From the NCBI RefSeq assembly GCF_900090235.1, contig NZ_LT607750.1:6467501-6531500 (forward strand): a stretch of DNA of 64,000 nucleotides, in the 5' to 3' direction. Each line of letters starts with the position of its first letter. Within the stretch, counting starts at the first letter, position 1. Below, piece by piece: positions 2,616 through 58,693 of this stretch. The notes under the pieces were generated by a model. The model was not told the origin of the DNA. It searched no databases and was given only the letters and a program-made list of their open reading frames with translations. The DNA comes from Micromonospora echinaurantiaca. Lineage in GTDB: Bacteria > Actinomycetota > Actinomycetes > Mycobacteriales > Micromonosporaceae. Position numbers and translations under genes: made by a program.

Positions 2616-2990
2616 TCAGAGGTAGAGGCAGAAGGGGTGGCCGGCGGGGTCGAGGTGCACCCGTACGTCGTCCTGGGGTTGGAAGTCCGCCAGGGTGGCC
2701 CCGGCGGCGACGGCGTGGGCGGAGGCCGCCTCCAGGTCGTCGACCTGGATGTCGAGGTGGATCATCATCTGCGGATCTCCCGGCCCGGCCGGCCACACCG
2801 GCCGTACGTAGTCCGACTCGGTCTGGAACGCCAGGCCGGCGCCGCCGCCCGGCGCGCGCAGCGTGACCCAGTCCGGTTCGTCCTCGTCCCGCGGCCACCC
2901 GAGCAGGCGTTCGTAGAACGCGGCCAGTTCCCGGGCGTCGGGCGAATCCAGCACGGTGGCGGTCAGCGTCAGCCGAGGTCGATCCTCCAT
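2616..2990 (-). CDS. VOC family (glyoxalase-like) protein
   Basis: 124-residue vicinal-oxygen-chelate protein with two beta-alpha-beta-beta-beta units: LTATVLDSPDARELAAFYERLLGW starts the first, and MMIHLDIQVDDLEAASAHAVAAGA starts the second, which ends HLDPAGHPFCLYL. The arrangement matches the actinobacterial CFBP/fosfomycin-type VOC subgroup without a defined substrate. Metal ligands are hard to assign; His in MIHLDIQ is a candidate. An in-frame ATG 12 bp further upstream (3002) is possible; 2990 is preceded by a modest GGACGG. It follows the FolD-like gene on the same strand. Confidence 0.82.
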   Translation of the reverse strand: MEDRPRLTLTATVLDSPDARELAAFYERLLGWPRDEDEPDWVTLRAPGGGAGLAFQTESDYVRPVWPAGPGDPQMMIHLDIQVDDLEAASAHAVAAGATLADFQPQDDVRVHLDPAGHPFCLYL

Positions 2991-3094
2991 ACCACCGTCC
3001 ATACCCAGGTGTCGGCGTGGGTCAAGCACGCGCGCCCCGACCGGCCTTCCGCCCCGGCCGGCCTTCCGCCCCCGGCCGGCCGGGGCGCCGCGGC

Positions 3095-3991
3095 TCAGGC
3101 GCGCCCGCTCAGCCGCTCGGCGGCGTCGACGGCGTTGCGGAAGAGCATCGCCACCGTGGTCGGGCCGACCCCGCCGACCCGGGGCGTGATCGCGCTGGCC
3201 ACCTCGGCGCACGACTCGTCGACGTCCGGCAGCAGCCGGCGGCCCTCGTAGCGGACGCCGGCCCCGATCACCACCGCGCCCGGCTTGACGTGCTCCGGCT
3301 GGATGATCCCGGGTACGCCGGCGGCGGCGACCAGGATGTCGGCGCGCCGGGTGTAGCGGTCCCAGTCCGGCACGCCGGTGTGCACGACGGTGACCGCCGC
3401 GTTGGCGGTGGGCCGCTTCTGCGCCAGCATGATCGACAGCGGCCGGCCGAGGGTCGCGCCCCGGCCCAGGATGACCACCTCACGCCCGGCGACCGGGATG
3501 TCGTAGTGGGCCAGCAGCGCCTCGATGCCGGCCGGCGTGCAGGGCAGCGGCCCGGGCAGCCCGAGCGCCAGCCGCCCGATGTTGAGCGGGTGCATCCCGT
3601 CGACGTCCTTGTCCGGGTCGACGCTCTGCAACGCCCGGTCGTAGTCGAGGTGGGCCGGGACCGGGTACTGCACGAGCAGCCCGTGCACCCCCGGGTCGGC
3701 GTTGTAGCCGGCGATCACCCGGTGCAGGTCCTCCTGCGTGGCGTCGGCCGGCAGGTGGGTGTGCGGCGACTCGAAGTTCAGCTCCGCCGCCTGGCGCTGC
3801 TTGATCCGGATGTAACCGGCGCTGGCGTCGTCGTCACCGACCAGTACGGTCGCGAGCGCCGGCACGACGCCCGCCCGGCGCAGCCGGGACACCCGGTCGG
3901 CCACCTCGGCGAAGACCTTGTCGGCGAGCGGCTTGCCGGACAGCAGCCGGGCGGTGTGCGGGATCACGGCGGTGTCGTCTGCGATGGGCAT
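3095..3991 (-). CDS. folD: FolD-like methylenetetrahydrofolate dehydrogenase/cyclohydrolase
   Basis: 298-residue protein of the bifunctional FolD family, which interconverts 5,10-methylene-, methenyl- and 10-formyl-tetrahydrofolate in the cytosol. Visible signatures are AGYIRIKQRQAAE with the catalytic Lys (residue 64), GLLVQYPVP with Gln108, PDKDVDGMHPLNIG with Asp131, and the cofactor-side ITPRVGGVGPTTVAML. Several positions differ from typical FolD: VQYPVP for VQLPLP, GRGATLGRP for GRSxxVGxP, and RVGGVGP for the usual PGGVGP. A GGGGGAGCC ribosome-binding site fixes the start at 3991; upstream in-frame starts lack one. It may be a second, diverged FolD of this genome. Confidence 0.88.
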   Translation of the reverse strand: MPIADDTAVIPHTARLLSGKPLADKVFAEVADRVSRLRRAGVVPALATVLVGDDDASAGYIRIKQRQAAELNFESPHTHLPADATQEDLHRVIAGYNADPGVHGLLVQYPVPAHLDYDRALQSVDPDKDVDGMHPLNIGRLALGLPGPLPCTPAGIEALLAHYDIPVAGREVVILGRGATLGRPLSIMLAQKRPTANAAVTVVHTGVPDWDRYTRRADILVAAAGVPGIIQPEHVKPGAVVIGAGVRYEGRRLLPDVDESCAEVASAITPRVGGVGPTTVAMLFRNAVDAAERLSGRA

Positions 3992-4229
3992 GGCTCCCCC
4001 AACGTGGGTGCCCAGGCGGTCGACTCCCACGGCGAGCTCCCCGATGGTTGGTGCCATCCCCGTGCCGCCAGTCGCGTTCCCACCCAGCTTGCCCCATCCG
4101 GCGTCGGCGGCGCCAGGCGACCCCGGGCGCCGCCGGCACCGTCGCCGGAAAAAATCTTGGCCGGTACGGTCCGGAACCGGGCCACCCGTTCGTCACCCTG
4201 GTGAGAATCACCGACCAGGGAGAGCCGAG

Positions 4230-4571
4230 ATGAAGTACATGATGTTCGTCTGCAGCGACACCGAGCCGGACGCCGACCGGGAGAACTGGCCCGACATCGA
4301 GGCGTGGGTGGCCGAGAACGACGCCCGTGGCCGCCGGCTGACCGGCGACGTGCTGGCCGAGACGACGGCGGCCACCACGGTCCGGGTGCGCAACGGCGAG
4401 CTGCTGGTGTCCGACGGTCCGTTCACCGAGACCAAGGAGGTGATCGTGGGCTTCGACCTGCTGGAGTGCGCCGACCTGGACGAGGCGATCGAGGTGGCCC
4501 GGACCCATCCGATGGCCCGGGCCGGCCGGATCGAGCTGCGCCCCTTCGCCGATCTGGCCCCGGGTGACTGA
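4230..4571 (+). CDS. DGPF (YCII-related) domain protein
   Basis: 113-residue YCII/DGPF-domain protein: MKYMMFVCSDTE at the start, the signature SDGPFTETKEVIVGF in the middle and DEAIEVARTHP before the end. The family fold is a ferredoxin-like barrel of unknown catalytic role. It overlaps the start of the following sigma factor gene by 8 bp, a pairing that is characteristic of the ECF42 sigma group, whose regulon usually consists of such DGPF genes. Start has AGGGAGAGCCGAG upstream. Confidence 0.93.
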   Translation: MKYMMFVCSDTEPDADRENWPDIEAWVAENDARGRRLTGDVLAETTAATTVRVRNGELLVSDGPFTETKEVIVGFDLLECADLDEAIEVARTHPMARAGRIELRPFADLAPGD

Positions 4572-49280: not shown

Positions 49281-51872
<2,592 letters not shown>

Positions 51873-52009: not shown

Positions 52010-52393
52010 ATGTTCGGGATGGGGAAGAAGGACTGGGAGCGGGAGCTCGAGGCGGCGATCGGGGAACTCGCGGGGGCGGACACTGTCGCGTTCGGCGGGG
52101 TGGGGATCGCGGGCACGCTGCTGCCGGCGACCGAGGCGTACCGGCGGGTGGAGGCGGCGCTGGCCGAGCACCCCGAGCAGGTACGCGAACACCTCGACCG
52201 GCTGCTCGCCGAGGGCTCGCCGGCCGGCCGGGCGTACGCGGCGACGCTGCTGGCGCGCCTCGACCCGGCGGCCGGCCGGGCGGCCTGGTCGGCGCTGGCC
52301 GAGGACCCGGGCGAGTTCACCACGTTCAGCGGCTGCGTGATGGGCCGCGCCACGCTGCGCGAGTACGCCACGGAGCGACTCGCCGAAGCATGA
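52010..52393 (+). CDS. Hypothetical helical protein, 127 residues
   Basis: No family name assigned. Cytosolic, helical, HEAT-like feel: RVEAALAEHPEQVREHLDRLLAEGSPAGRAYAATLLARLDPAAGRAAWSALAEDPGEFTTFSGC. The paired helix pattern RAYAATLLARLDPAAGRAAWSAL supports one or two ARM/HEAT-type units. GGGAAAGGTGGGGGC precedes the ATG. It stands alone between clpB and the DUF4178 operon. Confidence 0.72.
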   Translation: MFGMGKKDWERELEAAIGELAGADTVAFGGVGIAGTLLPATEAYRRVEAALAEHPEQVREHLDRLLAEGSPAGRAYAATLLARLDPAAGRAAWSALAEDPGEFTTFSGCVMGRATLREYATERLAEA

Positions 52394-52678: not shown

Positions 52679-53305
52679 GTGAACGGGTCGGTGGCGTACC
52701 TGGCGGCGGCGGTGGGGTGCCTGGTCGGGGTGGCCGGAATCGTGGTCGCAGTGGTGGCGCTGCGCCGTGCCCGGTCCCGGCCGCAGGGCCGGCCGGCCCC
52801 GGGCGACCCGTTGCGCGACCGGGACGCCGACGCGCTGCGCGGCGACCCGCGCCGCCTGCAACCCGGCGACCTGGTGGAGATCCGGCAGGTGACGTACGCG
52901 GTCCGCGGCTCGATCCGGCTGGTCGAGGGCGGCTGGAGCTGGACCGAGCACCTGCTGGACGACGCCGCCGGCGTACGCCGCTGGCTCTCCGTGGAGGAGG
53001 ACCCGGAGCTGGAACTGGTGCTCTGGACCGCCGAGCCGGCCGCGACCATCACCCCGGGCGCCCCGACCATCGACTTCGCCGGCCGCCGCTACAGCTGGGA
53101 CGAGTCCGGGCAGGCCCGCTACACCGCCACCGGCACCACCGGCCTCGACCCGAACGGCACCATGCGCTACCACGACTACCAGGCCCCCGGCGGCGCCCGG
53201 CTCTCCTTCGAGGCGTACGGCGAGGCGGGCTGGGAGGTGGCCCGGGGCGAGGTGCTGCACCGGGCCGAGGTGATGATCTACCCGCAGGGCGGGACCGACC
53301 GGTGA
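52679..53305 (+). CDS. DUF4178 domain protein, membrane-anchored
   Basis: 208 residues: one N-terminal membrane helix (SVAYLAAAVGCLVGVAGIVVAVVAL) followed by a DUF4178 domain: LQPGDLVEIRQVTYAVRGSIRLVEGGWSWTEHLLDDAAGVRRWLSVEEDPELELVLW, then ITPGAPTIDFAGRRYSWDESGQARY and GARLSFEAYGEAGWEVARGEVLHRAEVMIYP. DUF4178 domains are beta-rich and recur in operons with DUF350 and spermidine synthase-like proteins. Function unknown. First gene of a tightly packed six-gene operon; its stop overlaps the next start (GTGA). Confidence 0.88.
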   Translation: MNGSVAYLAAAVGCLVGVAGIVVAVVALRRARSRPQGRPAPGDPLRDRDADALRGDPRRLQPGDLVEIRQVTYAVRGSIRLVEGGWSWTEHLLDDAAGVRRWLSVEEDPELELVLWTAEPAATITPGAPTIDFAGRRYSWDESGQARYTATGTTGLDPNGTMRYHDYQAPGGARLSFEAYGEAGWEVARGEVLHRAEVMIYPQGGTDR

Positions 53306-53808
53306 TCGTCACCCTGCACGCCCCGTACGTCGACACCAGCGCGGCCGACCTCAGCCTCGCCCTCGACGACGTCGAGCGGCCCGCGCTGCACGTGCTGGAC
53401 CTCGACCTGCCCGGCGCCGTCCGGCTGCGGCTGCGCCTGCTCGGCGCCTCGCACCAGGTGGTGCTGCGGGCACCCGGCGCGGCGCTGACCGAGACCGTGG
53501 CCTGCCTGCCCGGCCGGCCCCCCGAGCTGCCCGGAGCGCTGCACGACGAGCGGGCCGGCTACCGGTTCACCGCCACCGTGCTGCGCCCCGCGGGCAGCGG
53601 CCTGCGGGACCGGGTGGCCGCCCTCCGGGCCGACCTGGCCGACGACCCGTACGCGCTGGTGGGGGTGTTTCCCGGCGACGTCGACGCGGTCACCGCGCTG
53701 TCGGTGCGGCCCGACCCGCCGGACGGCACCCTCGGCTGGCGCACCTGGCACGCGTACCCCCAGACCAACGAGCTGGTCCTGACCGAAACGGTGGTGGCAC
53801 TGCGATGA
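53302..53808 (+). CDS. DUF2617 family protein
   Basis: 168-residue soluble beta-rich protein: VTLHAPYVDTSAADLSLALDDVERPALHVLDLDLPGAVRLRLRLLGASHQV at the start and GWRTWHAYPQTNELVLTETVVAL at the end, both DUF2617 hallmarks. No catalytic motif is evident. GTG start in the preceding stop, and its own stop overlaps the DUF4247 start (ATGA). Confidence 0.88.
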   Translation: MIVTLHAPYVDTSAADLSLALDDVERPALHVLDLDLPGAVRLRLRLLGASHQVVLRAPGAALTETVACLPGRPPELPGALHDERAGYRFTATVLRPAGSGLRDRVAALRADLADDPYALVGVFPGDVDAVTALSVRPDPPDGTLGWRTWHAYPQTNELVLTETVVALR

Positions 53809-54230
53809 CGTACCGACGCTGGTTCGTGGTGGGGGCGGTGTTCGCCGTCATCGGCGCGCTGGTCGCCGCGTTCGCCATCTTCTACGGCAATTTCTCGCCG
53901 CGCGGCTACGTGGAGGACCGGTACACCCGGGCGTCCAGCCGGGACATCGGCGCGGACGCGGTTGCGTACACGTCGCCCCGGTCGCCGAGCCAGGTGGCGA
54001 AGGAGGTCACCGACGCCTGGCAGCCGGCCGACCAGTACGTCGACGGCAGCGGCGTCTACCTGCGCTACGACGACGACTCGGTGGTCATCCTGCCGATCGC
54101 CACCGGCTCGGTGATCCTGCTCGAACGGCTGCGCACCGCCTACCCGCGCTACCACTCCACGGTCGGCAACCACTGGGGCTGGGGGCGCGGCAACACCGTC
54201 CGGGGCGGCGGCCCGGGCAGCGGCAAGTAA
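53805..54230 (+). CDS. DUF4247 domain protein
   Basis: 141 residues. An N-terminal membrane helix (WFVVGAVFAVIGALVAAFAIFYG) and an extracytoplasmic DUF4247 domain (VEDRYTRASSRDIGADAVAYTSPRSPSQVAKEVTDAWQPADQYVDGSGVYLRYDDDSVVILP) with a Gly/Trp-rich tail (GNHWGWGRGNTVRGGGPGSGK). Function unknown. Third gene of the operon. Confidence 0.88.
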   Translation: MTYRRWFVVGAVFAVIGALVAAFAIFYGNFSPRGYVEDRYTRASSRDIGADAVAYTSPRSPSQVAKEVTDAWQPADQYVDGSGVYLRYDDDSVVILPIATGSVILLERLRTAYPRYHSTVGNHWGWGRGNTVRGGGPGSGK

Positions 54231-54283
54231 CCCCGGCTTCTGCGTACCCGGCACGTCGATCCCCCTCAACCCTGGAGAACCCT

Positions 54284-54706
54284 GTGCAGACCCTCGTCAC
54301 CGATCTGCTGGTCACCCTCGCCTACGGGGTGGTCGGCGTCCTGCTGATGGGCATCGGCTACGTCCTGGTGGACGTCGCCACCCCCGGCAGGCTCAACGAG
54401 CTGATCTGGAACGAGCGCAACCGCAACGCCGCGCTGCTGCTCGCCTCGAACCTGGCCGGGGTGGGCATCATCGTGGTCGCCGCGATCGCCGCCAGCGAGG
54501 ACGACTTCGTGCTCGGTCTGGTCGGCGCGGCGGCGTACGGCGTCCTCGGCCTGGTCATCATGGCGGCGGCGTTCCTGCTGCTCGACGCGGCCACCCCGGG
54601 CCGGCTGGGCGAGCTGCTGGTCGACCCGGAGCCGCACCCGGCGGTCTGGGTCTCGGCCGTCGTCCACCTCGCCACCGGCGCGATCATCGCCGCCGCGATC
54701 AGCTGA
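54284..54706 (+). CDS. DUF350 (YjfL-type) membrane protein
   Basis: 140 residues and four membrane helices in two DUF350 repeats; each contains the D-x-x-T-P-G-R-L motif (LVDVATPGRLNELIWNERNRNAALLLASNL and LLDAATPGRLGELLVDPEPHPAVW). DUF350 proteins recur with spermidine synthase-like and PspA-type genes in envelope-stress operons. GTG start 53 bp after DUF4247. It ends on the start of the next gene. Confidence 0.9.
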   Translation: MQTLVTDLLVTLAYGVVGVLLMGIGYVLVDVATPGRLNELIWNERNRNAALLLASNLAGVGIIVVAAIAASEDDFVLGLVGAAAYGVLGLVIMAAAFLLLDAATPGRLGELLVDPEPHPAVWVSAVVHLATGAIIAAAIS

Positions 54707-55503
54707 TGGCCACCGCCAAGCGCACCCCGGCCACGGGCCGGAAGACCTCCAAGGCGGCCGTCTGGGTCACCTGGCTGAGCGTGGCCGTGGTGCTCGGCGG
54801 CTGCGTCGTCGCCGGGGTGCTCAACAACGACGGGGACACCGACGTGCCGGCCCCGGTCGGGCAGGAGCGCGACGACACCGTGGCGATCCTGAAGCGCTCC
54901 TCGGCCAGCCAGGGCGTCTGCTACGGCTGGGAGCTGACTGACTACTTCGGCTACGGCGACCCGGTGAGCGTCGGCTCCAACCTCGGCGACGGGGTGGCGG
55001 TGGCGGACAACCCGTCCTGCCCGCGCTGGCTGCAGGTGGGCGTCCGGGTCTACTACGCGTCGGAGAGCAGCGAGAGCGAGGACAACGCCTACGTCGACGT
55101 CACCGGCTCCGACGACTTCTCCGCGACGGAACTGCTGCGCATCGAGAACGGGCTGGACCGGCTCGGGGTCACCAGGGAGGTCTTCGTCGACGACCCGGGC
55201 TGGGCGGTCACCCGGGCCGCCGTGATGCTGCCGCTGCTCGCCGTCGAGGCGGGGGTGGCCCAGCCGGCCGCCACGCCGACCCCGGCCGCGGCGGCGCCGT
55301 CGCCGCTGCCCGACCCCGGCGGCGACCTGTGGCGGGACCGCTGGGGCTACCTGCTCGCCGCCGCCGGCCTGCTGCTGGTCACCGCGCTGCTGGTCACCGT
55401 CGGAGTCGTGCAGCGCCGCCGGCAGCGGGCGGAGCAGGCCACCGTGCCGGCGCAGCGCGCCGGAGGCAAGCGGGCCGCGGAGCGTACCCCGGAGAAGGCG
55501 TGA
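54706..55503 (+). CDS. Bitopic membrane protein with extracytoplasmic domain
   Basis: 265 residues: N-terminal membrane helix (AVWVTWLSVAVVLGGCVVAGVL), a soluble domain of about 150 residues (SSASQGVCYGWELTDYFGYGDPVSVGSNLGDGVAVADNPSCPRWLQVGVRVYYASES) with two Cys likely to form a disulfide, a Pro/Ala linker, and a second membrane helix near the end (WGYLLAAAGLLLVTALLVTVGVV). No family recognised. It shares start/stop overlaps with both neighbours, so it is an integral part of the operon. Confidence 0.78.
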   Translation: MATAKRTPATGRKTSKAAVWVTWLSVAVVLGGCVVAGVLNNDGDTDVPAPVGQERDDTVAILKRSSASQGVCYGWELTDYFGYGDPVSVGSNLGDGVAVADNPSCPRWLQVGVRVYYASESSESEDNAYVDVTGSDDFSATELLRIENGLDRLGVTREVFVDDPGWAVTRAAVMLPLLAVEAGVAQPAATPTPAAAAPSPLPDPGGDLWRDRWGYLLAAAGLLLVTALLVTVGVVQRRRQRAEQATVPAQRAGGKRAAERTPEKA

Positions 55504-57068
55504 CCGTCGACGCGCCGGAACGGCCGCGCTGGCGACTGGCCCGGGCGGCGGTGCTGCTCGCGGTCTTCGTCTGCGCGGCCTGCGGCCTGGTCTACGAGCT
55601 GGCCCTGGTCGCGCTCGGCAGCTACCTGATCGGCGACACGGTCGGCCAGGCGTCGATCGTGCTCGGCGTGATGGTCTTCGCGATGGGCGTCGGCGCGCTA
55701 GCCGCGAAGCCGTTGCAGTCCCGGGCGGCCGCCGCGTTCGCCGCCGTCGAGCTGGCGCTGGCGCTGCTCGGCGGTCTGTCGGTGCTCGGCCTCTACGCCG
55801 CCTTCGCCTGGCTCGACCTCTACGGGCCGGCGCTGGTCGGCACCGCCTTCGTGCTCGGGCTGCTGATCGGCGCGGAGATCCCGCTGCTGATGGTGCTGCT
55901 GCAACGGATCCGGGAGCAGGCCGCCGGCAGCGCGGTCGCCGACCTGTTCGCCGCCGACTACGTCGGCGCGCTGCTCGGCGGGCTGGCCTTCCCGTTCCTG
56001 CTGCTGCCGGCCTTCGGCCAGCTCAAGGGGGCGTTGGTGGTGGGCGTGGTGAACGCGGCCGCCGGCCTCGCGCTGGTCTGCACCGTCTTCCGCCGCGAGC
56101 TGAGCCGCCGGGCGCGGGTCGCGCTCGGCGCCGGCACCGCCGTGGTCGCCCTCTGCCTCGGGTACGCGTGGGTGACCGCGCACGACTTCGAGCTGACCGC
56201 CCGCCAGCAGCTCTACCGGGACCCGGTGGTGCACGCCGAGCGCAGCCGGTACCAGGAGATCGTGCTGACCCGCTCGGTCAGCGAACCCGGCCGCACCGGC
56301 ACCGACCTGCGGCTCTACCTCAACGGCGACCTCCAGTTCAGCTCGTCCGACGAGTACCGCTACCACGAGGCGCTGGTGCACCCGGTGCTGAACGGGCCGC
56401 GCGGCGAGGTGCTGGTGCTCGGCGCCGGCGACGGGCTCGCGGTCCGTGAGCTGCTGCGCTACCCGGACGTCCGGCGGATCACCGTGGTCGACCTGGACCC
56501 GGCGGTGGTGGCGCTGGCCCGCAGCGAGCCGCAGCTGCGCCGGCTCAACGGCGGGGCGCTCGACGACCCCCGGGTGCGGGTGCTGCACGCCGACGCGTTC
56601 ACCTGGCTGCGCAACGCCACGGACCGGTTCGACGCGGTGGTAGCGGACCTGCCCGACCCGGACGAGACGGCCACCGCCAAGCTCTACACGGTCGAGTTCT
56701 ACGCGCTGGTCCGCGCGGTGCTCGCTGACGGCGGCCGGCTGGTGGTGCAGTCCGGCTCGCCGTACTTCGCGCCCCGGTCGTACTGGTCGATCGAGGCGTC
56801 GCTACGCGAGGCGGGCTTCGCCACCACGCCGTACCACGTGGACGTGCCCTCCTTCGGCGACTGGGGTTTCCTGCTCGCCGCACCCGGCGCCGCCCCGCCC
56901 GCGCTGGCGCTGCCGGCCGACGCGCCGGCGCTGCGCTTCCTCGACGCGGCGACCCTGGCCGCGGCCGGGGCCTTCCCCGCCGACCGGCGCCGGCTGGACG
57001 TGCCGGCCTCCACCCTGCTGCACCCCAGGGTGCTGGAGTACGCCCGCGCGGAGTGGCGCGGCTACTGA
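55500..57068 (+). CDS. Membrane-bound polyamine aminopropyltransferase (spermidine synthase-like)
   Basis: 522 residues. Residues 10-230 hold about seven membrane helices; residues 245-510 are a spermidine synthase domain. Visible are YHEALVHP (288-295), the AdoMet-type loop LVLGAGDG (306-312), VVDLDPAVV (329-337), HADAF, VVADLPDPDE (380-389) with the catalytic-position Asp, and TTPYHVDVPSFGDWGFLLA, typical of the membrane-bound branch. It would transfer aminopropyl groups from decarboxylated AdoMet to an amine, possibly at the membrane. No AdoMet decarboxylase is in the window. GTG start overlapping the previous stop. Confidence 0.9.
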   Translation: MTVDAPERPRWRLARAAVLLAVFVCAACGLVYELALVALGSYLIGDTVGQASIVLGVMVFAMGVGALAAKPLQSRAAAAFAAVELALALLGGLSVLGLYAAFAWLDLYGPALVGTAFVLGLLIGAEIPLLMVLLQRIREQAAGSAVADLFAADYVGALLGGLAFPFLLLPAFGQLKGALVVGVVNAAAGLALVCTVFRRELSRRARVALGAGTAVVALCLGYAWVTAHDFELTARQQLYRDPVVHAERSRYQEIVLTRSVSEPGRTGTDLRLYLNGDLQFSSSDEYRYHEALVHPVLNGPRGEVLVLGAGDGLAVRELLRYPDVRRITVVDLDPAVVALARSEPQLRRLNGGALDDPRVRVLHADAFTWLRNATDRFDAVVADLPDPDETATAKLYTVEFYALVRAVLADGGRLVVQSGSPYFAPRSYWSIEASLREAGFATTPYHVDVPSFGDWGFLLAAPGAAPPALALPADAPALRFLDAATLAAAGAFPADRRRLDVPASTLLHPRVLEYARAEWRGY

Positions 57069-57152: not shown

Positions 57153-57986
57153 GTGGTCGACACCCAGAACCCGCCGGCCCGGTCACGGCCGGGCGTGGTG
57201 ACGATATCCAGCTACCTGCTGATCCTGTTCGCCGTGCTCCAGGTGATCAGCCTCATCATCTCGCTCGCCACGATCGGCACGGTGCGCGACGTGTTGGACG
57301 AGGCGTACAGCGGCACCTCGGCCAACGGCATGCAGAACGTCGCGGACTTCGCGTTCGCGGCGGGCATCGCCTCCAGCATCCTGTTCCTGCTGCTGTCGGT
57401 GGGCCTCGCGGTCCTGGCCCTGTTCAACAACCGGGGCAGCAACGGCTCGCGGATCGCCACCTGGATCCTCGGCGGCATCATGGTCTGCTGCACCGGCGGC
57501 AACCTGATCGGCGGTGTGACCGGCAGCTTCGGCGGGACCGGCGGGACCGACGGGGACGTGCCGAGCGGCGAGGAGATCCAGCGGATGCTGGACGACCGGC
57601 TGCCCGCGTGGGTCACCCCGGTCACCGTCCTGCTCGGGGTGATCTCGCTGCTCGCGCTGCTCGCCGCGCTGATCCTGCTGGCGCTGCCGAAGGCGAACGA
57701 GTTCTTCCGCAAGCCGAAGCAGGTGTGGGAGCCGCCGGTGCCCGGCGCGTCCTACCCCGGCTACCCGCAGGCGCCGGGCCAGCCCGGTTACCCGCAGACC
57801 CCGGGCCAGCCGGGCTACCCGGCCGCGCCGGGTTACCCGCCGGCGCCCGGCCAGCCGGGTGGCGCGGCCGAGCCGCCGTACCCGGGCGGCCCGCAGCAGC
57901 CGGGGAGTGCGCCCGGCGGCCCGGAGCAGCCGGGTGCGCAGCCCGGGTCGGACCGCCCCGGCCCGACCCTGCCGCCGGTGAGCTGA
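57153..57986 (+). CDS. Four-helix membrane protein with Pro/Gly/Tyr-rich tail
   Basis: 277 residues: four membrane helices (about residues 15-40, 68-92, 105-125, 153-178) and a cytosolic tail of repeated PGQPGYPxxPG units ending PGPTLPPVS. The fourth helix ends LLALPKANEFFRK, closely matching LLALPAANAWFRR in the next gene, so the two are paralogues. GTG start with GGGAAGGAGAATC. Function unknown; the tail resembles phase-separating or scaffold sequences. Confidence 0.78.
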   Translation: MVDTQNPPARSRPGVVTISSYLLILFAVLQVISLIISLATIGTVRDVLDEAYSGTSANGMQNVADFAFAAGIASSILFLLLSVGLAVLALFNNRGSNGSRIATWILGGIMVCCTGGNLIGGVTGSFGGTGGTDGDVPSGEEIQRMLDDRLPAWVTPVTVLLGVISLLALLAALILLALPKANEFFRKPKQVWEPPVPGASYPGYPQAPGQPGYPQTPGQPGYPAAPGYPPAPGQPGGAAEPPYPGGPQQPGSAPGGPEQPGAQPGSDRPGPTLPPVS

Positions 57987-58057: not shown

Positions 58058-58693
58058 GTGTCGTATCCCGATCAGGCCCCGACCCGTCGGCCGGCCGTGG
58101 TCGTGCTGGCCGCCGCGGTGCTGGCCGTGATGGCGGTCGCCGCGGTCGGGTACGCCGTGGCCGGCCTGCTCGCTCTCGGCGGCGCCGTCGCGGAGTTCCG
58201 GTCGGCCGCCGCCGGCACCTCGGCCCGACCCGACGAGATCGACGGCATGGTCACCCTGCTCCGGGTGTCCACCGTGCTCACCGCGGTGGTGAGCCTGCTG
58301 GGCGGGCTGCTCCTCGCCGGGCTGGCCCTCGGCCTGCTCGCCGGCCGCTCCGGCGCCCGGGTCGGCACCTGGGTGGTGAGCGGGCTGGGTCTGCTCTTCG
58401 GTTGCTGCGGGCTGGCGGTCCTGGTCGGGCAGCGGGCCGCCCCGCTGCGGCTGGGCGCCGACGAGCGGACCACCGCCGAGCTGCTGGCCCTGCTCGGCGA
58501 CGCCCAGCCGGGCTGGTGGCTGCCGGTCAACGCGGGGCTTTCCGTCGGCCAGGTGCTCGGCTACCTTGTGGTGGCCGCGCTGCTGGCCCTGCCGGCGGCG
58601 AACGCGTGGTTCCGCCGGCGCCCGCCGGTCGGGCCGACCGATCGGCACCAGCCGCCCGCGGCGCCCCTCGCGCCCCCGTACCCGCCCAGGTGA
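58058..58693 (+). CDS. Four-helix membrane protein, paralogue of the preceding one
   Basis: 211 residues with four membrane helices (about 14-40, 68-92, 103-126, 163-184) and a short Pro-rich tail (PPAAPLAPPYPPR). It has the same topology and the same fourth-helix end (LLALPAANAWFRRR) as the 277-residue protein upstream, but lacks the long PGQPGYP tail. GTG start after GGAGGGAC, which lies in a stem-loop. Function unknown. Confidence 0.78.
   Translation: MSYPDQAPTRRPAVVVLAAAVLAVMAVAAVGYAVAGLLALGGAVAEFRSAAAGTSARPDEIDGMVTLLRVSTVLTAVVSLLGGLLLAGLALGLLAGRSGARVGTWVVSGLGLLFGCCGLAVLVGQRAAPLRLGADERTTAELLALLGDAQPGWWLPVNAGLSVGQVLGYLVVAALLALPAANAWFRRRPPVGPTDRHQPPAAPLAPPYPPR

What the first reader, a model, noticed from the sequence alone, without database searches (positions are those of the whole stretch)
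52679..57068. Six-gene overlapped operon around a membrane aminopropyltransferase: DUF4178-DUF2617-DUF4247-DUF350-membrane protein-SpeE-like
All but one junction are 1- or 4-bp overlaps (53302/53305, 53805/53808, 54706, 55500/55503), so the six products are made together. Four families of unknown function and a novel disulfide-type membrane protein surround a spermidine synthase domain fused to seven membrane helices. DUF350, DUF4178 and spermidine synthase-like proteins recur together in bacterial envelope-stress gene neighbourhoods (known), but the usual ATP-grasp, PspA-like and AdoMet decarboxylase partners are absent here. This suggests a compact actinobacterial version that makes or attaches a polyamine at the membrane. 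The function is unproven.
Basis: partly seen in the sequence, partly recalled or inferred. Interest (0 to 1): 0.78.

Follow-up and report, generated by a model that had tools for sequence, protein, structure and literature searches.

The report
Operon with candidate missing SAM decarboxylase
This six-gene bacterial operon pairs a spermidine-synthase-like enzyme with a small protein of unknown function (DUF2617) that, among sampled relatives, is found almost only in genomes with no recognisable copy of the standard enzyme that makes such a synthase's donor molecule, so DUF2617 is likely the unidentified donor-making enzyme of mycobacteria and their relatives.

Summary
The operon is real: six genes in the stated order, three 4-bp overlaps, one 1-bp overlap, one 53-bp gap, conserved in many Actinomycetota. 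This operon type (DUF4247/DUF2617 with DUF350) is already in print. The new result concerns DUF2617. The window's one-contig genome has no AdoMet decarboxylase (PF02675), the enzyme that makes decarboxylated AdoMet for spermidine synthases. In 298 genomes of the order, 93 carry the fused synthase: 74 have DUF2617 (73 without PF02675) and 19 lack it (18 with PF02675; the other is cut by a contig end). A prediction tested on named genomes held: PF02675 in 9 of 9 without DUF2617, 0 of 22 with it. In 14 of 15 fetched DUF2617-less operons the other core genes remain. In five Nocardia genomes the fused synthase is the only synthase found that could use AdoMetDC's product. I conclude that DUF2617 likely makes the same donor, which would fill the decarboxylase gap noted for mycobacteria in 2004. 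Weak points: few independent losses (at least three), no sequence membership in the AdoMetDC family, an inconclusive fold comparison, and no biochemistry. The acceptor is unknown.

The parts
52679..53305 (+). DUF4178 protein, 208 aa, one N-terminal helix
   Evidence: Pfam PF13785 E 2.9e-38; hydropathy; start codon GTG is one choice in a frame open from 52622
53302..53808 (+). DUF2617 protein, 168 aa, soluble; candidate donor-making enzyme (stand-in for AdoMet decarboxylase)
   Evidence: Pfam PF10936 E 7.5e-50; either/or pattern with AdoMetDC
53449..53454 (+). Ser50-His51 of DUF2617 in the G-x-S-H motif; proposed pyruvoyl-forming serine (inferred)
   Evidence: motif in 188 of 188 sequences; unique match of the back-translated motif in the window; turn between two strands in the model
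53491..53505 (+). E-T-V-A-C motif of DUF2617 (residues 64-68)
   Evidence: ETx-A-[CY] in 188 of 188, with Cys in 181 of 188
53746..53763 (+). W-H-A-Y-P-Q motif of DUF2617 (residues 149-154, His150)
   Evidence: H-x-Y-P in 188 of 188
53805..54230 (+). DUF4247 protein, 141 aa, one N-terminal helix
   Evidence: Pfam PF14042 E 1.4e-21; hydropathy
54284..54706 (+). DUF350 membrane protein, 140 aa, about four helices
   Evidence: Pfam PF03994 E 4.8e-26; hydropathy
54706..55503 (+). P5, two-helix membrane protein, 265 aa; optional accessory
   Evidence: hydropathy; found in 13 of 80 named loci and 12 of 20 genome pieces, in two alternative places
55500..57068 (+). SpeE-like protein, 522 aa: seven predicted helices plus spermidine-synthase domain
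   Evidence: NCBIfam NF002956 690 bits; hydropathy
56229..56909 (+). spermidine-synthase domain, residues 244-470
   Evidence: alignment with solved chains 7xif and 1uir; conserved active-site columns

Best explanation
The operon likely encodes a self-contained aminopropylation system: the DUF2617 protein would make the donor, decarboxylated AdoMet, in place of the classic AdoMet decarboxylase that was not found in this genome, and the predicted membrane-bound SpeE-like enzyme would transfer its aminopropyl group to an unknown, probably envelope-associated acceptor. Shown here: gene order; no PF02675 in the genome; the near-complete either/or pattern of DUF2617 and PF02675 among genomes with the fused synthase; DUF2617 missing from otherwise kept operons where PF02675 is present; and no group-specific difference in the synthase between the two kinds of genome. 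Inferred: that DUF2617 itself forms decarboxylated AdoMet. More speculative: that it does so through a self-made pyruvoyl group at conserved Ser50, with His150 as partner. DUF350, DUF4178, DUF4247 and P5 are inferred to form or regulate the membrane site.
For: No PF02675 in the genome. Class sample of 197 genomes: 45 with the fused synthase, 42 with DUF2617, all 42 among the 45; the three without DUF2617 all have PF02675. Prediction tested on 32 named genomes: PF02675 in 9 of 9 DUF2617-less complete operons, 0 of 22 with DUF2617; the one contig-cut locus had none. Order sample of 298 genomes: among 93 with the fused synthase, DUF2617 only 73, PF02675 only 18, both 1, neither 1. DUF2617 lies 0.5-2.0 kb upstream of the synthase in 74 of 74. 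14 of 15 fetched DUF2617-less pieces keep DUF4178, DUF4247, DUF350 and SpeE; the fifteenth is contig-cut; G311 keeps them too. In five Nocardia genomes the fused synthase is the only PF01564 match and AdoMetDC stands alone. No column is 80% conserved for different residues in 27 DUF2617+ and 25 DUF2617- synthases. 25 of 80 named loci keep just the pair DUF2617-SpeE. PMC524486 (passages): M. tuberculosis lacks an AdoMetDC homologue, yet the activity was reported in M. bovis homogenates.
Against: DUF2617 has no PF02675 match, and profile similarity to AdoMetDC is marginal. The fold comparison is inconclusive. Independent losses are few: four state changes on the tree, one unsure (G460), sign test p 0.25. 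PF02675 also occurs in 46 of 205 order genomes without the fused synthase. G636 has an intact DUF2617 and no synthase match. G023 and G193 have both PF02675 and DUF2617. Among control genomes Lactococcus lactis has PF01564 with neither. The wording of PMC11237479 could mean that some DUF2617 operons elsewhere also hold AdoMetDC. No biochemistry.
Confidence: 0.6

Rival explanations
1. DUF2617 does not make decarboxylated AdoMet but lets the fused synthase work without it, for example as a partner that makes it accept AdoMet itself (3-amino-3-carboxypropyl transfer) or another donor.
For: It gives the same either/or pattern and the same close gene pairing; DUF2617 is not in the AdoMetDC family.
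Against: The synthase shows no group-specific column between genomes with and without DUF2617, so a changed donor is not expected; five Nocardia synthases appear to be fed by AdoMetDC.
Confidence: 0.15
2. The pattern is mostly shared descent: a few ancient lineages happened to lose DUF2617 and to have AdoMetDC, and DUF2617 has another role in the envelope.
For: At least three but only about four independent changes; PF02675 is widespread in one family with or without the fused synthase.
Against: The changes that can be counted all go the opposite way in DUF2617 and AdoMetDC or tie, never the same way; the lost gene is DUF2617 while its neighbours stay; Actinophytocola (L042) keeps DUF2617 and has no PF02675.
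Confidence: 0.2
3. The operon is an ordinary spermidine pathway: whatever makes the donor, the fused enzyme just makes free spermidine.
For: The synthase domain aligns with solved spermidine synthases and NCBIfam names the family polyamine aminopropyltransferase.
Against: Conserved membrane partners are not needed for a soluble product. From recall, Li et al. 2019 (not held) found that an MFS-fused synthase did not replace spermidine synthase in E. coli; PMC11237479 cites that paper for aminopropylation of other substrates.
Confidence: 0.25

Closest known systems
DUF4247/DUF2617 variant of DUF350-polyamine operons (Ravi et al. 2024, PMC11237479; passages)
   Same: DUF350, DUF4247 and DUF2617 in one operon, DUF4178 and a 7TM-fused spermidine synthase in a related group; DUF2617 already called a predicted enzyme with conserved His, Asp and Glu.
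   Different: Here no AdoMetDC in the genome; DUF2617 is given a specific proposed step; P5 is added; no PspA or ATP-grasp match among the proteins scanned.
AdoMet decarboxylase (SpeD; PF02675, TIGR03330)
   Different: No family match, marginal profile similarity, an additional all-beta first half in the model, activity untested.
Membrane-fused polyamine aminopropyltransferase (NF002956/PRK03612)
   Same: Full-length match, 690 bits over a cut-off of 472.
   Different: No sequence difference found; substrate not shown here.

Membership tests
Membrane-fused polyamine aminopropyltransferase (NF002956/PRK03612) | Full-length model match over the curated cut-off | tested here: met
   689.9 bits, cut-off 472, residues 7-520
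Membrane-fused polyamine aminopropyltransferase (NF002956/PRK03612) | Conserved synthase active-site residues | tested here: met
   Y288, E290, D311, D365, D383, D386, Y396, E399 in 52 of 52 rows; their roles are recalled
Membrane-fused polyamine aminopropyltransferase (NF002956/PRK03612) | Aminopropyl transfer activity | not testable with these tools
   needs biochemistry
AdoMet decarboxylase (PF02675) for DUF2617 | Sequence match to the family model | tested here: not met
   PF02675 not among matches up to E 1 for DUF2617; profile comparison marginal, 1 of 150 scrambled controls scores higher
AdoMet decarboxylase (PF02675) for DUF2617 | AdoMetDC fold | tested here: inconclusive
AdoMet decarboxylase (PF02675) for DUF2617 | Internal serine that becomes pyruvoyl | tested here: inconclusive
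   Ser50 invariant in 188 of 188; cleavage untested
AdoMet decarboxylase (PF02675) for DUF2617 | Decarboxylation of AdoMet | not testable with these tools
   only genome pattern
DUF350-polyamine operon group of Ravi et al. 2024 | DUF350 with DUF4178/DUF4247/DUF2617 and a polyamine enzyme in one operon | tested here: met
DUF350-polyamine operon group of Ravi et al. 2024 | PspA/CesT dyad or ATP-grasp partner in the operon | tested here: not met
   no such match listed for the six proteins or four flanking ones (for ClpB only 25 of 50 rows were shown); the rest of the genome was not searched for them

The most novel reading that the evidence does not exclude
DUF2617 is a new, structurally distinct class of self-processing (pyruvoyl) AdoMet decarboxylase that stands in for SpeD in most actinobacteria with the membrane-fused synthase, and probably in haloarchaea; it is the unidentified AdoMet decarboxylase of mycobacteria and feeds an aminopropylation of the cell envelope.
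Probability: 0.35. Interest if true: 0.85.

Novelty: new variant of a known kind. Interest (0 to 1): 0.72.

Why it matters
A 2004 paper (PMC524486, passages) called the missing AdoMet decarboxylase of M. tuberculosis the most glaring omission in its methionine-regeneration pathway and noted decarboxylase activity in M. bovis homogenates with no enzyme identified. The genome pattern found here names one candidate gene family for that step and makes the question testable with one E. coli complementation. If true, it adds a further protein solution to a basic decarboxylation and explains how the actinobacteria that hold this synthase but no SpeD get their donor.

Tried and rejected
Rejected: that AdoMetDC was merely overlooked near the operon (whole-genome search negative; only the PF02675 family was searched, not the eukaryotic-type family). 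Rejected: that the synthase of DUF2617 genomes has a changed donor site (no group-specific column). Rejected as proof: sequence homology of DUF2617 to AdoMetDC. Led nowhere: DUF2617 profile against solved structures (one chance hit, E 0.26); Foldseek with the whole model and with the C-terminal half (no E <= 0.001; AdoMetDC entries are not among the rows shown, which does not exclude them); DUF2617 and one AdoMetDC locus in plasmids (no match); P5 relatives (every organism named in the 120 listed rows is Micromonospora, though profiles find P5 in other families). One search's gene order was distorted by stop-to-stop frame starts and was redone on frame ends. The Fisher value treats related genomes as independent and is not used as a probability. 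The class, order and named samples share genomes (G050 and G427 give the same AdoMetDC place, as do G691 and G428), so they are given separately and not added.
Full report
OBSERVATION. Pfam confirms DUF4178, DUF2617, DUF4247, DUF350 and Spermine_synth. The sixth protein matches NCBIfam PRK03612 over nearly its whole length, 690 bits over a cut-off of 472, and its C-terminal part aligns with solved aminopropyltransferases such as 7xif and 1uir. Hydropathy gives no helix for DUF2617, one for DUF4178 and DUF4247, about four for DUF350, two for P5 and seven for SpeE. The window lies in a genome of 7.2 Mb in one contig; P5 is 96% identical to a protein named Micromonospora echinaurantiaca.

CONSERVATION. 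A scan with the synthase gave 80 named loci, the best of 586 that matched. With profiles built from the window proteins, gene orders judged by frame ends are: DUF4178-DUF2617-DUF4247-DUF350-SpeE 18 loci (a nineteenth, L009, has a second DUF4178 downstream); with P5 before SpeE 7; with P5 between DUF4247 and DUF350 4; without DUF4247 8; the pair DUF2617-SpeE alone 25 (two of them on short contigs); and smaller classes. DUF2617 is in 68 of 80. Of the 12 without it, 3 are cut by their contig (L010, L043, L056) and 9 are Nocardia or Saccharopolyspora. P5 is in 13 of 80 named loci (one of them a fragment at a contig end) and in 12 of 20 fetched genome pieces: an optional accessory with two alternative places.

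THE MISSING DECARBOXYLASE. Spermidine synthase uses decarboxylated AdoMet, which AdoMet decarboxylase makes (PMC10407285, passages). The window's genome has no PF02675; the same search rang in 8 of 14 control genomes. I therefore compared whole genomes. In 197 genomes of the class, 46 matched the synthase at E <= 1e-20; in one (G382) the match is an ordinary synthase in one frame with AdoMetDC, which leaves 45 with the fused membrane form. DUF2617 is in 42 genomes, all among the 45. The three without it (G050, G235, G311) all have PF02675. Two of the 42 (G023, G193) have both. Their PF02675 stretches are identical and have Tyr where most have Cys, and the G193 copy is just under the NCBIfam AdoMetDC cut-off (74.1 against 75.65 bits), while the G311 copy (81.3) and a Nocardia copy (104.2) are over it.

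I wrote the either/or idea down and tested it on 32 named genomes: PF02675 in 9 of 9 with a complete operon lacking DUF2617, in 0 of 22 with DUF2617, and not in the one genome whose locus is cut (L043). A sample of 298 genomes of the order (tabulated) gave: fused synthase 93, DUF2617 76, PF02675 65. Among the 93: DUF2617 without PF02675 73; both 1 (G467); PF02675 without DUF2617 18; neither 1 (G536). G536's synthase lies at a contig end, so what is upstream is unknown. G467's PF02675 stretch lacks the S-H-x-S-x-H-T-x-P-E motif and matches no NCBIfam model. Of the 18, G460 is cut upstream of DUF350, so its lack of DUF2617 is unsure. Two genomes have DUF2617 without a synthase match: G657, where one short frame joins part of DUF2617 to the end of SpeE, a collapsed operon; and G636, an intact DUF2617 with no synthase in the 9 kb fetched, a true exception. 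In all 74 genomes with both genes, DUF2617 is 0.5-2.0 kb upstream of the synthase on the same strand. Among the 14 control genomes DUF2617 rings in Corynebacterium glutamicum and Haloferax volcanii only; both ring for PF01564 and neither for PF02675 (one of the 11 PF01564 rings is under the cut-off, which one is not told). Lactococcus lactis rings for PF01564 with neither DUF2617 nor PF02675 and does not fit; what its protein is was not looked at.

WHAT IS LOST. Of the 18 order genomes with PF02675 and no DUF2617, I fetched the operons of 15. Fourteen (L198-L211) keep DUF4178, DUF4247, DUF350 and SpeE, eleven of them with P5; the fifteenth (L197, G460) is contig-cut. G311 also keeps these four genes.

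WHO USES THE DONOR. In Nocardia rhamnosiphila, jinanensis, flavorosea and two carnea genomes the fused synthase is the only PF01564 match at E <= 0.001, while AdoMetDC stands alone with no synthase within about 1.5 kb. Its product has no other candidate user among PF01564 proteins, so the fused synthase most likely uses decarboxylated AdoMet. In two Saccharopolyspora and two other Nocardia genomes AdoMetDC is next to, or in one frame with, a second synthase. Across 52 synthases (27 with DUF2617, 25 without) no column is 80% conserved for different residues in the two groups; Y288, E290, D311, D365, D383, D386, Y396 and E399 are in all 52. The same donor is therefore expected in both groups, and in DUF2617 genomes without AdoMetDC no other source is known.

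INDEPENDENCE. On a synthase tree of 52 chosen rows (quick method) DUF2617 changes state four times (Nocardia; the family that includes Saccharopolyspora; G311; G460, unsure). Over 200 random pairings AdoMetDC never goes the same way and goes the opposite way in 2.7 of 3 pairs on average, but the sign test gives p 0.25. PF02675 is also in 46 of 205 genomes without the fused synthase. The argument rests on repeated coincidence and the removal of one gene, not on a phylogenetically corrected p-value.

LITERATURE. PMC11237479 (passages) already reports the DUF4247/DUF2617 variant and calls DUF2617 a predicted enzyme; its wording leaves open whether some of those operons also hold AdoMetDC. A search for DUF2617 found three papers: passages were read in two, which propose no AdoMet decarboxylase role, and the third (PMC9505326) was seen only in the listing. 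PMC524486 (passages) states that M. tuberculosis lacks an AdoMetDC homologue and that the activity was reported in M. bovis homogenates. PMC11841054 (passage) says that M. tuberculosis expresses speE, Rv2601. Li et al. 2019 on MFS-fused synthases is not held and is recalled.

MECHANISM. I commit to this: DUF2617 decarboxylates AdoMet in the cytosol, perhaps through a self-made pyruvoyl group at Ser50; the fused SpeE transfers the aminopropyl group to an envelope-associated acceptor; DUF350, DUF4178, DUF4247 and P5 form or regulate the membrane site. Only the genome pattern is shown; each chemical step is inferred. One point is unresolved: with seven helices and K+R-rich loops 69-76, 133-146 and 197-206, the positive-inside rule puts the synthase domain outside, which would need donor transport or means that the helix count is wrong.

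VERDICT. The operon is of a known kind. The proposal that DUF2617 stands in for AdoMet decarboxylase was not met in the papers found, and it is cheap to test.

Noticed in passing
window 55500-57068: Seven predicted helices and K+R-rich loops 69-76, 133-146 and 197-206 put the synthase domain on the outside by the positive-inside rule, at odds with a cytosolic donor.
   Followed up: partly
L218 (G657), 2812-4230: A Micromonospora operon collapsed by deletion: DUF4178 intact, then a 97-aa frame with part of DUF2617 joined to the end of SpeE.
   Followed up: partly
L217 (G636), 3841-4386: Intact DUF2617 with no SpeE in the 9 kb piece and no synthase match in that genome.
   Followed up: partly
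L009: Micromonospora noduli has a second DUF4178 downstream of the synthase, and no P5 was found in its operon.
   Followed up: no
G128, G358, G398: Each of these three genomes has two fused synthases and two DUF2617 genes.
   Followed up: no
L104, L105, L089: AdoMetDC and a second, shorter synthase lie in one open frame of 408-413 codons.
   Followed up: no
L214 4600-4911 (G467): A divergent PF02675-like protein without the S-H-x-S-x-H-T-x-P-E motif.
   Followed up: partly
G000:C1:956959-957366 (L006, L222): A second DUF350 gene in the window's own genome, away from this operon.
   Followed up: no
window 52010-52393, 57153-57986, 58058-58693: Flanking open frames without a Pfam match over cut-off, next to a ClpB-like gene at 49281-51872.
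   Followed up: no
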